Shown here: positions 15,104 to 37,421 of the stretch, piece after piece
How positions within the stretch are numbered: the first letter of the stretch is position 1
How the letters are laid out: each line of letters opens with the position of its first letter
DNA from: Bifiguratus adelaidae
Taxonomy: Eukaryota > Mucoromycota > Endogonomycetes > Endogonales
DNA length: 64,000 nt
Direction of reading: 5' to 3'
Assembly (NCBI GenBank): GCA_002261195.1
Contig: MVBO01000011.1
Span: 62,001-126,000, forward strand
Translations under genes and position numbers: made by a program
Notes under the pieces: model-generated
What the model saw: only the letters and a program-made list of their open reading frames with translations
The model's database searches: none
What the model was told of the DNA's origin: nothing

Positions 15104-15488
15104 ATGGTGAGTCCAAATGGCTGCTGCTAGTCGACGGCGCGTGCACATGGATTAACGTATACACTTATAGTCTGCCATTTTCAACTTTCAATCGTTATTG
15201 CTGGTCATCATACTTCTCATCTGCACCTGCACTTACATCAAGGCTCAAGTACCCTCATTACTCGACAAGAACAAAACTGGGTAAGTGCTGCACCCATCAA
15301 ATCCCATGCTACATTGATGTTGACTGTATTGCTTAGTGTACTTGGTCTGTTTTGGAAACTAGCACGGATAGGTAAGTCAAGTCGAACGAGTGTTCTATCC
15401 TGGCTTAAACACTGCCGTAGGGGAACGTCTAAGTCCCTATGTATCACTGGCGTGCATAGCAATGGCTGTCAGCATGATGATCAATTGA
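15104..15488 (+). CDS. KISH/TMEM167 Golgi membrane protein
   Basis: Four exons (15104-15106, 15171-15280, 15337-15371, 15421-15488) give 71 residues: [11 protein letters not shown]..., [39 protein letters not shown]. This aligns almost residue for residue with TMEM167/KISH (72 residues in humans), a two-span secretory-pathway protein. The first coding exon is only the ATG, split from the rest by a 64-nt intron. The conserved second residue Ser at the start of exon 2 supports this model. Too short to be found as a single open frame. Confidence 0.93.
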
Positions 15489-33002: not shown

Positions 33003-36000
33003 ATGACTTATGCCGAGGACGACGACTTTGAGCAACAATATGCAAAGGAGTTTGCAATCATGAGGACTCGGGCTACGGAAGACGAGCCAGCGCTACCCCA
33101 ACCACGAAAGCGAGCACTAGTCAAGGCGACGAAGCAATCACCGCGACCTAGGTCCAACTACTTCGATGGCGGTTCGTTGCATCTCAGCACTCTCTCCAGC
33201 GACTTGAATGACAATGATGATGTGCAAGCTGCAGGTGAGATGTGAATTAGGTAATAAAAGTTGAACCTCGCTGACAGTGTTCAAACGGCTTCAGATGACG
33301 ATGTGCTCCAAAATCTTCCGCCTAAGCATCTCGTGCACGCGTCACGGCCATCAGTTCAGCATACAAGCAGTAAATTAGACTCGGAGCTTTTTGAGGGTGA
33401 TAGCGAGGGTGACATCTCGCAGGCGTCCCCTATTTATGAACACAAATTCGGTGAAACAGATCGGATCCAATCTTCTGACAACGACTCAAAGTTGATGGCG
33501 GGAAGGAAGCGATCGGAGACCCGTGTATTAGATACCATCAGGGAGAAAGAGAATCTGTCTCCTCTCTTTTATGCGAGTGGAGACCGTCACAAGAAACGTA
33601 AGATCAACAACGAGGCAGACGATATGGCACTCGACGACGCTGCGAGTCAGGAAGCGATGACGAAACAAACAATGTCGCCTGATCCTAGGTTAAGTCCCAC
33701 ACCACACGCTATGGAAGACATGTCTGTACTCCAGAGGCAGCTTGAAGGAAGTTCAAAGCAAGACTACTCTCAAATGCCCGAGACAGGCGCTTTTCAACAT
33801 GCCGTATCCTCCACCGGCAAACCATTCTATTTTCCAAAGGTCGTCAAATCAAAGTCCCCGACGTCAACCATCTCGCTGCCAAATCATTCTACACCAAGAG
33901 GATACAATCAACGGTTTCCAAGTCTTCTCGAAAAGCCAATACCACATCTGATTGAGCTATTACGGCTAGAGCGAATTAGTAACTCGGACCGGGCCATAGC
34001 GGAGATAGAAGCAATGAGTGAACACACCCTCACACTAGGCGACGGCAAAAATAACACGAATTTGCGTCTGTGGACTGAAAAGTATCGTCCGCGATCCTTT
34101 TTGGATTTGCAAGGAGATGAGCGATTAAATCGCGAGGTCCTATCTTGGGTCAAATGTTGGGATCAATGTGTTTTCGGCGACGACAGGTTCAACCAGCAAC
34201 GACAAACCACTTCGCATCGCGGCCGCGTGCAACAGACGCGTGATGTGGACGGGAATGTCGCAGATCCATGGGGTAGACCGGATCGCAAGGTAGGCAAACG
34301 ATGAACGGAAGGTGAATAATATTCAAACTCCTCCATATCAGATACTCCTTTTGACGGGCCCACCTGGAGTTGGCAAAACAACCATAGCTCACATAGCAGC
34401 AGCACACGCAGGATACCACACCATTGAGATCAATGCAAGTGACGATCGAACCGGCGAGATTGTCAAATCCAAAATCACCGCCGCCACGCAAATGCAGGCG
34501 ATCGTGACAGGCGACGACCGCAAAGGCGAAACCGTACAGAAACCCAGCTTACTCATCATTGACGAAATTGACGGTGTCAGCGCTGGAGGAGGTGCTGACA
34601 GTTTTATTAACCTACTCACTGATCTGGTAACCGCCGGCAAATCAGGGACCGTCAAGAAAGGCCGCAAGAAGAGAGGTCCACACCGTCCACTTCTCCGACC
34701 CATTATATGTATATGCAATGACCAATTTGCGCCTGTATTGCGCCCGCTTCGTCAAATTGCCCACATTCTCAACTTTCGCAAAACTACCAACAATCACATC
34801 TCTAAACATTTACTGCGAATTTGCGAACTTGAGGGTCTCACGACCGATTTGAGGACATTGTCCTCCCTCACCGAGCGCTCAGGAGGAGACTTGCGGAGCT
34901 GTCTCAATTCACTGCAATTCGTTCGCAACAGAACAACCCAGTTGACACCCGAAATGCTTCTTGACGAATCACTTGGTCGCAAAGATGTTGGTAAATCCAT
35001 TTTTGCCCATATGGAAGAGATATTTTTCAAGGAAACCACCCGAGCGAAACGTAAGATGAAGCAGGCAGGATTAGATACCTCCGAAGGCATGTGAAGAGGC
35101 GGTTCAAGAATACCTTGACCTTGCTAACAATGCGCTTTCAGATGCCGGAGGACTGACAAAACTCAAGGATTCCATTGAAGACTTTGGTGACTTTGGCAAG
35201 CTGATTCAAGGTAAGCTTACAGCTTGCTCCCATAGATCGCAGATAAACCAACTGACCTTGTATAGGGTGCTTTGAAAATTATCCGCAACTCGAATTCCGT
35301 GACTATGCGTGCGAAAAACTTGTCCTCATTGGGGACTGGTTGGATTTCTACGAGCGCGTGGACCATCGCGTATCCAATTTGCACATACATGAACTTTATG
35401 GATACCTGCCGTATGCCATCGTCAATTTCCACCGCTTTTTCGCTGCTTCAATTCGACAAGAACACCGAATGGAGTTCCCAAAGACGGATTATGAGGTACG
35501 GCGACGTAGACCTTGTCTTGGTTGGATACTTATACCAACGTATACAGAACTACATGCTGCAAAAGCAGAATGAACGCCTCTTGTCGATTTTCCAGATGGG
35601 AATGGCTCCACATCTGAGACGAACCTTGACCGCAAGACGCCTAACGACAGAATTCTTAAGTCCACTCTTACGCATCATTTCGCCCAATCTCAAGCCCATC
35701 AATCGACAACTTATCAAACCCCAAGAGAAAACCATCCTTGTGCGAGTGGTCCATCTCATGTTATCCACTGGATTATCCTTTGTGCAAGAGCAGTCTGAGG
35801 ATAGTCAATACCTCTACCGAATGGAACCGTGGGTATCGCGTCATATTTCCAAGTCGTTGTGTTGGCTAATTGCCCCGGCAGTCCAATCGATACATTGATC
35901 ATGTTTCGCAGCATGGCGAATAAGCCGACCTTGGCCAACAAATACGCGGTCCGTCAACTCATATCGCGCGAGGTAAGTTGTCGTCATGGTTCGGCGAATG

Positions 36001-36441
36001 GGAGATTGACCAGTTGTAGATTGAACTCGAACTATTACGTCGACAAGAGGAGGCTGCCGATAGGAAAGTCGGGCTGGCCAAAAACGCCGATCGCAAAGCG
36101 TATCCTCATCGTCACGTTGATCTTGACTTGGCAAAGCAAGGCATCAAGAAGACTGAGGAGAAGGTAAGTTAGGGCGATCATGAAGGTAAGGAGACACATT
36201 GACCTTACTTTGTCGATAGCCGCCAGTGGATTTTTTTGGTAGACCGGTGGTGCAGAACCATTCGACTGAGAAAATAAGCGGTGGCAGTAGAAAAGGTGAG
36301 CCGCCCCTGTCCGTCTCGATGCGCATTGCCGGCTGATGCCATCTCCTAGCGCAAACCATCATATCTCCCATTCGTTACAAATACAATGAAGGCTTCTCTA
36401 ACGCTGTGAGGAAGCCTGTTACTGTACAAGAGCTGTTGTAA
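33003..36441 (+). CDS. CTF18: Ctf18 alternative clamp-loader large subunit
   Basis: About nine exons, close to 980 residues. A long acidic, low-complexity N-terminus is followed by LWTEKYRPRSFLDLQGDERLNREVLSWVK (RFC box II region), Walker A GPPGVGKTT, Walker B LLIIDEIDG, a sensor region IICICNDQFAPVLRPLR, then the collar domain. The C-terminus VDFFGRPV followed by RYKYNEGFSNAVRKPV matches the end that binds Dcc1-Ctf8. Ctf18-RFC loads PCNA at forks and supports cohesion. Intron 35087-35141 must start at GCATGT to keep the conserved GLTKLKDSIEDFGDFGKLIQGCFENY reading. The only nearby GT donor leads to a stop. Confidence 0.93.
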
Positions 36442-36561
36442 ATGGTCGTCAACATTAGAATCCATCCATTCACCTCGCTTCAATCAAGCTATCCATCTCT
36501 GCTATCTTGCTGCGCCATCCATTGTCTTTTTTCATTGCCACTCTTTCCTTGACGTCTGATA

Positions 36562-37421
36562 ATGGTAAGTGAAAGGCGCGCAACAGGTTGCATCAGGTCA
36601 ATTAACACGCTTTCTTTGCATTCGTCGTTGTTCTTTTCGCCCTCTTTCTAGTCGGTAAGTGTCCTCATTGGTCGTTTGTTCTGAATGTAATGAACAAGAG
36701 CGCTGACTTGTGTTTTCTAGTACTTTCTGCCTCATTTGACAAACGGTATGTTATCGTTGCGTCCGCTTAACCATACGTACTGACGCCTTGTTTGCAGGAT
36801 GGCAAGTTGACCAAGCGATCCTGGCCGAGGAAGATCGGGTCGTCGTCATTCGGTTCGGTCACGACTATGTAAGTCTGCAAACAACCATCCCTTGAGCACG
36901 CGCTAATAGGTCATGCTCTTGTAGAACCCCGAATGCATGAAGATGGACGAAACGCTGTACGGTATAGCTGAAAAGGTCAAGAACTTTGCCGTGATATATC
37001 TCGTAAGTCCTTTGGGCATGGCATTGATGTGGATCTCTGCTCACGCATGCACTTTAGGTGGACATTACCGAAGTACCGGATTTTAACAAGGTAAGCGTCA
37101 CCTACAGTCACCTGCGCCCCGCTTTGCAAGAGAATAACCTGACTTGTAGATGTACGAATTATACGATGAGTGCACCGTCATGTTTTTCTTTCGCAACAAA
37201 CACATGATGGTGGATTTGGGAACAGGAAACAACAACAAGATCAACTGGGCATTAGAGGACAAGCAGGAGTTGATTGATATCATTGAGGTAAGGCCGCCTT
37301 TGTGCCCCGTCGACCAAATATCTCACATATCTTCATGCTCTAGGTCGTCTATCGCGGGGCTCGCAAAGGTCGTGGTCTCGTTGTATCACCCAAAGACTAT
37401 TCTACAAAGTACAAGTACTAG
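36562..37421 (+). CDS. DIB1: Dib1/TXNL4A U5 snRNP protein
   Basis: At least eight exons encode the ~142-residue thioredoxin-like spliceosomal protein: MSYFLPHLTNGWQVDQAILA, VVVIRFGHDYNPECMKMDE, NFAVIYLVDITEVPDFNK, CTVMFFFRNKHMMVDLGTGN, KGRGLVVSPKDYSTKYKY. Dib1 blocks premature activation and leaves when the B complex becomes Bact. The first coding exon is just ATG (36562-36564), the second just TCG (36652-36654) and the third 25 nt (36721-36745). The invariant MSY start requires the TCG exon. Sequence conservation with human TXNL4A makes the rest of the model secure. Confidence 0.95.
36652..36654 (+). other. DIB1: 3-nt microexon of DIB1 (Ser2)
   Basis: TCG is flanked by tttctag on the left and gtaagt on the right, both strong splice signals. 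The preceding intron is 36565-36651 (87 nt) and the following one 36655-36720 (66 nt). It supplies Ser2 of the near-universal MSY start of Dib1 proteins. Skipping it would leave the frame intact and give MYFLPH. Confidence 0.8.

What the first reader, a model, noticed from the sequence alone, without database searches (positions are those of the whole stretch)
36562..36745. 3-nt microexon and ATG-only exon at the start of DIB1
The near-invariant MSY start of Dib1 is split into ATG | TCG | TAC..., with GTAAGT donors after both ATG and TCG and TTTCTAG acceptors before TCG and TAC. A coding exon of three bases is at the lower limit of what spliceosomes are known to handle. It sits in a gene for a core spliceosome protein, so self-feedback on splicing fidelity is conceivable. 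Skipping would be frame-neutral and remove Ser2.
Basis: partly seen in the sequence, partly recalled or inferred. Interest (0 to 1): 0.8.

Follow-up and report, generated by a model that had tools for sequence, protein, structure and literature searches.

The report
Three-base exon in fungal DIB1 gene
In a fungal gene for a core splicing protein, the first and second amino acids appear to be coded by separate exons, the second exon being only three bases long; it is a rare but known kind of gene structure that no RNA data have yet confirmed here.

Summary
A complete Dib1 gene (142 aa) lies at 36562-37421 (+), and its conserved start Met-Ser-Tyr reads ATG | TCG | TAC across two introns (36565-36651 and 36655-36720), each with a GTAAGT donor and a TTTCTAG acceptor. 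Tyr3 can only follow the acceptor at 36720. Upstream (36000-36720) no one-intron parse supplies Met-Ser; two two-intron parses do, both using TCG at 36652-36654, and only one has a consensus donor. In simulated sequence such an arrangement appeared in 0 of 50,000 trials at strict splice signals and in 5 and 13 of 50,000 at relaxed signals, under two models. The bare motif is not special genome-wide (11 matches against 8 for the reversed control). The 'ATG-only exon' is simply a 5'UTR exon ending in ATG; a KSH1-like gene in the window starts the same way. I read TCG as a constitutive 3-nt microexon, joined by two separate intron-definition splicing events. It is not at the size limit: 1-nt exons are published in Arabidopsis and Fusarium. 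Nothing found supports self-feedback on splicing. No RNA was available, so inclusion is inferred. Verdict: real, rare, a new member of a known kind.

The parts
36562..36564 (+). start codon ATG, coding part of exon 1 (the rest of exon 1 is 5'UTR upstream)
   Evidence: A at -3; the in-frame upstream ATG at 36442 runs into a stop before 36562
36565..36651 (+). intron 1, 87 nt, GTAAGT...TTTCTAG; only YTNAY branch-like site TTAAC, 46 nt from the 3' end
36652..36654 (+). 3-nt microexon TCG (Ser2)
   Evidence: MS in 130 of the 136 relatives with that stretch recognised, of 167 fetched
36655..36720 (+). intron 2, 66 nt, GTAAGT...TTTCTAG; branch-like CTGAC 14 nt from the 3' end
36721..36745 (+). exon 3, 25 nt, YFLPHLTN + first base of Gly11
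36798..36868 (+). exon 4
36925..37002 (+). exon 5
37058..37090 (+). exon 6
37150..37287 (+). exon 7
   Evidence: matched in the six-frame search
37344..37421 (+). exon 8 with stop TAG

Best explanation
The gene encodes Dib1 (Dim1/U5-15kD). Its mRNA is made by removing two short introns that flank a constitutive 3-nt exon, TCG, giving ATG-TCG-TAC (Met-Ser-Tyr). Shown in sequence: each intron has its own donor with a run of seven matches to U1, its own branch-like site and its own acceptor. Inferred: three bases cannot carry two assembled complexes at once, so the introns are recognised by intron definition and leave one after the other. Either order yields the same product; intron 2, with CTGAC 14 nt from its acceptor, is the likelier to go first, after which skipping is no longer possible. 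Skipping (36564 to 36721) is expected to be a minor error giving a protein without Ser2. Retention of either intron gives an early stop.
For: Complete Dib1 only if both tiny pieces are used. Only consensus-donor parse for Met-Ser; chance 0/50,000 strict and 5 or 13/50,000 relaxed. Both donors GTAAGT with a run of 7 U1 matches, equalled in this gene only by introns 6 and 7. MS precedes Tyr, Phe or Cys in 130 of 136 relatives with that stretch recognised. A single 156-nt intron would be nearly three times the gene's other five introns (52-59 nt). Retained introns carry in-frame stops. The window's contig is in the protein database (P0121, contig 259,967 bases = C13), yet no own Dib1 is among the best 120 rows of either search, as expected if gene finders miss the tiny exons (not proof: calls made without splicing would do the same).
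Against: No transcript was available. Intron 1 has no strong branch site near its acceptor (only TTAAC at 46 nt). By total U1 matches intron 1's donor (7) is not the best of the gene (introns 2, 4 and 6 have 8). MA- starts occur in 4 of 136 relatives, so Ser2 is not absolutely required. The bare motif is near its chance rate in the genome. The microexon is not universal in fungi: the mis-framed Mortierella alpina model fits a contiguous ATG-TCN-TAY start.
Confidence: 0.85

Rival explanations
1. The 3-nt exon is alternatively used: a regulated share of mRNA skips TCG and makes Dib1 starting Met-Tyr.
For: Skipping is in frame and has a strong donor and acceptor. An in-frame 3-bp alternative exon exists elsewhere (Drosophila hth, PMC7392893, passages).
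Against: Ser2 near-invariant; both donors strong. Regulatory elements were not searched for.
Confidence: 0.1
2. TCG is not an exon: one 156-nt intron (36565-36720) is removed and this species' Dib1 starts Met-Tyr.
For: 36564 to 36721 keeps frame; the 3-nt-exon motif alone is near chance genome-wide (11 against 8); of the 8 of 11 sites looked at, Dib1 is the only convincing 3-nt exon, with one ambiguous (L008).
Against: It needs chance to place YAG-TCG-GTAAGT, coding exactly the conserved Ser, between ATG and Tyr3; 156 nt is atypical for this gene.
Confidence: 0.04
3. Met-Ser comes from a different, more distant upstream exon, or the gene copy is not expressed.
For: Two broken, partial Dib1 copies exist elsewhere in this genome, one of them still bearing introns.
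Against: Within 720 nt upstream the only other parse uses GTCGTC as donor; this copy is the only intact one that one search found, and Dib1 is expected to be essential (recalled).
Confidence: 0.03

Closest known systems
Single-nucleotide exon of Fusarium CYP621A P450 genes (PMC12940212; passages)
   Same: fungal ultra-short exon inside a conserved motif; an over-long intron was one clue; confirmed there by SRA reads
   Different: 1 nt and frame-essential; here 3 nt, frame-neutral, at codon 2, and no reads yet
Single-nucleotide exon of Arabidopsis APC11 (PMC4674806; passages)
   Same: constitutive; authors favour intron definition combined with one-after-another removal
   Different: plant, 1 nt, tested experimentally
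3-bp micro-exon 8 of Drosophila homothorax (PMC7392893; passages)
   Same: same length, in frame
   Different: alternatively spliced from a 48-bp exon by donor choice, internal to the protein
Trichoderma virens Xlr2 20-nt microexon (PMC11121469; passages)
   Same: fungal microexon
   Different: 20 nt, glucose-regulated
Microexons of Phanerochaete chrysosporium P450 genes (PMC1184071; passages)
   Same: fungal microexons between short introns
   Different: shortest reported there is 6 bp

Membership tests
Microexon (internal coding exon of up to about 30 nt) | length within range | tested here: met
   3 nt, 36652-36654
Microexon (internal coding exon of up to about 30 nt) | consensus acceptor before and donor after | tested here: met
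   TTTCTAG|TCG|GTAAGT
Microexon (internal coding exon of up to about 30 nt) | each flanking intron complete (donor, branch site, acceptor) | tested here: met
   intron 2 clear; intron 1's only branch-like site is far, TTAAC at 46 nt
Microexon (internal coding exon of up to about 30 nt) | codes a conserved part of the protein | tested here: met
   supplies Ser2 of MS[YFC], 130 of 136 relatives with the stretch recognised, of 167 fetched
Microexon (internal coding exon of up to about 30 nt) | present in mature mRNA | not testable with these tools
   no RNA reads held
Microexon (internal coding exon of up to about 30 nt) | exon conserved in related species | tested here: inconclusive
   no near relative's DNA was reached (none; only two contigs filed under bacteria, both with a contiguous start); annotated fungal proteins give hints only
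Recursive-splicing exon (definition from the abstract start of PMC6224609, listing) | splicing to the preceding exon creates a donor at the junction | tested here: not met
   exon begins TCG; the donor is 3 nt downstream
Dib1/Dim1 (PF02966) | full-length match to the family | tested here: met

The most novel reading that the evidence does not exclude
The 3-nt exon works as a built-in fidelity sensor: when tri-snRNP or Dib1 function falls, either flanking intron is retained (early stop) or TCG is skipped (Dib1 without Ser2), tuning Dib1 output and so the spliceosome itself.
Probability: 0.04. Interest if true: 0.75.

Novelty: new member of a known kind. Interest (0 to 1): 0.36.

Why it matters
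If confirmed by RNA, it adds a 3-nt constitutive fungal exon at codon 2 of a core spliceosome gene, a natural substrate for asking how intron definition copes when two introns are three bases apart, and a clear case of a conserved gene that automatic annotation is likely to get wrong. I met no report of it: 'DIB1' with 'microexon' and 'microexon' with 'fungi' and '3-nt' returned no paper; among the papers listed for wider microexon searches no title or abstract start names DIB1; for 'microexon' with Mucoromycota, Mucor, Rhizopus or Umbelopsis, 5,928 papers held at least two terms and the 10 listed did not hold 'microexon', so a lower-ranked paper could have been missed. The library lacks most subscription journals.

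Tried and rejected
Relatives' DNA: the viral-contig scan found none; genome contigs gave two eukaryote-like contigs filed as bacterial MAGs (L009, L010), both with a contiguous start (ATGTCGTTT and ATGAGCTTT) and introns elsewhere. They are distant and do not bear on the lineage.

Pseudogene comparison: I hoped the C57 copy would preserve the microexon; the strong alignment begins in exon 4, recognisable similarity by eye reaches only into the 3' half of intron 2, and the alignment further upstream is gap-ridden and not convincing.

Other 3-nt exons in the genome: of the 11 motif sites (Dib1 included) were held as loci and scanned. Of the 7 others, 5 (L002, L004-L007) had no donor-like GTRNG 45-110 nt upstream. 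L003, L007 and L008 were also read by eye, without a family search: L003 (transporter-like) and L007 (membrane-protein-like) are open reading frame up to a normal donor; L008 (it resembles, from recall, the C-terminal end of a PP2A B subunit) has intron signals on both sides of CGA, but CGAGTAA also reads as a normal last exon with a stop. None is a convincing second case. The remaining 3 of 11 were not examined.

Invalid or replaced outputs: one search's one-intron column is invalid because of a script error, and one search replaces it; one search left minus-strand loci unturned and is replaced; one search placed exon 4 one base late and is corrected; one search stopped before L010, done. The in-window count of intron-like pairs did not exceed its controls (33 and 30 against 37 and 42) and supports nothing beyond a cluster of 50-59-nt lengths on the + strand (16 of 33).

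Full report
What is there. The letters described are exactly at the stated coordinates. Exons 36562-36564, 36652-36654, 36721-36745, 36798-36868, 36925-37002, 37058-37090, 37150-37287 and 37344-37421 join to 429 nt and a 142-aa protein. It is Dib1: PF02966 at E 9e-69, and human U5-15kD 1qgv aligned from residue 1 to 142. The genome search finds exons of this copy plus two broken partial copies on other contigs.

Is the microexon needed? The codon in frame before TAC is TAG, the end of intron 2's acceptor, so Tyr3 can follow only the acceptor at 36720. I listed the ways to reach Met-Ser from 36000 to 36720 (one intron, GT or GC donor; two introns, GT-AG, 40-400 nt each): no one-intron way, and two two-intron ways, both with TCG at 36652-36654; one starts at 36442 with the poor donor GTCGTC, the other at 36562 with GTAAGT. 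The reading frame from 36442 hits a stop before 36562. Skipping TCG keeps frame but loses Ser2; keeping intron 1 or intron 2 introduces stops.

Is it more than chance? The bare motif is not: 11 matches genome-wide against 8 for the reversed control, and 3 in the window against 1.42 expected, with 16 of 100 shuffles reaching 3. The full arrangement is: with a 280-base stretch drawn from first-order models of the region or of the window, ending in a fixed acceptor, a two-intron route to Met-Ser or Met-Ala appeared in 0 and 0 of 50,000 at strict signals and in 5 and 13 of 50,000 at relaxed ones. One-intron routes were commoner (13 and 16 strict; 168 and 227 relaxed), but the real sequence has none.

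Signals. Both donors have a run of seven matches to U1 (G-1 to T+6), equalled only by introns 6 and 7; total matches are 7 (intron 1) and 8 (intron 2) against 6, 8, 7, 8 and 7 for introns 3-7. Intron 2 has CTGAC 14 nt from its last base. Intron 1 has only TTAAC at 46 nt, a weak point. Introns 1 and 2 are 87 and 66 nt; the other five are 52-59 nt. A single 156-nt intron would be out of line, the same kind of clue that the Fusarium 1-nt exon paper gives (PMC12940212, passages).

Conservation of Met-Ser. From the best 120 rows of two searches (4530 and 3852 hits in all) I had 167 Dib1-like proteins. My pattern did not recognise the start region in 22 (of which at least P0106 and P0146 visibly begin MSY or MSF), 9 were modelled from a later Met (M-L-P-H-L or alike), and 136 had three residues before it: 130 MS[YFC] (120 MSY, 7 MSF, 3 MSC), 4 MA[YF], 1 His-tagged construct and 1 chytrid model with an apparent retained intron. 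No own-species Dib1 was listed (best identities 90% and 91%), although the database holds this contig (P0121). This fits a missed or broken gene model but does not prove it.

Hints from other fungi, all inferred from protein models, not DNA. Mortierella alpina's model is out of frame in a way that fits a contiguous ATG-TCN-TAY start over the whole stretch of about 21 residues tested, while 0 of 40,000 random trials stayed compatible past 30 nt. Powellomyces hirtus fits an intron inside the Ser2 codon, 111 nt long. Rhizomucor pusillus's model starts Met-Val-Ser, as ATG|GTNAGY would read, and lacks MSYFLPHLTN; that is one case, noticed after the fact. So introns around codon 2 probably vary among fungi; whether the TCG exon is shared is unknown.

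The ATG exon. The pattern ATGGTRAGT occurs twice on the window's + strand and not on the other strand or in two control sequences. The other case, 15104, opens a gene whose spliced product begins [11 protein letters not shown], matches PF06842 and which I recognise from recall as KSH1/TMEM167. It too is ATG | 64-nt intron | TCT. An intron right after ATG is therefore not peculiar to Dib1 here.

How it works. The model in the literature for a 1-nt exon is intron definition with the two introns removed one after another (PMC4674806, passages); plant microexon work argues likewise that both sides cannot be assembled together (PMC8831610, passages). I adopt that; the order (intron 2 first) is my inference from the branch sites. 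It is not a recursive-splicing exon, since joining ATG to TCG does not create a donor at the junction.

Limits. No RNA, no near relative's DNA, and the species is not identified.

Noticed in passing
15104-15488 (+): KSH1-like gene (PF06842) with the start codon alone before a 64-nt intron: ATG|GTGAGT...TAG|TCT, plus a 35-nt third coding exon.
   Followed up: yes
L017 (G000:C57:138500-141500, minus strand): Broken, intron-bearing second copy of Dib1, highly similar in exons and introns alike from exon 4 on (DNA-level duplication, not retroposed); intron 3 and parts of exons 3 and 4 are missing, and similarity fades within intron 2.
   Followed up: partly
L018 (G000:C1:444000-446500, minus strand): More decayed 3' fragment of Dib1 (76% identity over residues 76-117).
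   Followed up: partly
L008, around 1501-1516 after turning: 3-nt-exon-like site (TTTTTAG CGA GTAAGT) with intron signals on both sides at the end of a gene that resembles a PP2A B subunit (recalled resemblance); an ordinary last exon with a stop explains it equally well.
   Followed up: partly
L009 and L010: Contigs filed as Verrucomicrobiaceae and Crocinitomicaceae MAGs carry an intron-containing eukaryotic Dib1 gene, so probably eukaryotic contamination of bacterial bins.
   Followed up: partly
36442-36564: Upstream ATG in frame with the Dib1 start, ended by a stop; a possible short upstream ORF if transcription starts that far out.
   Followed up: partly
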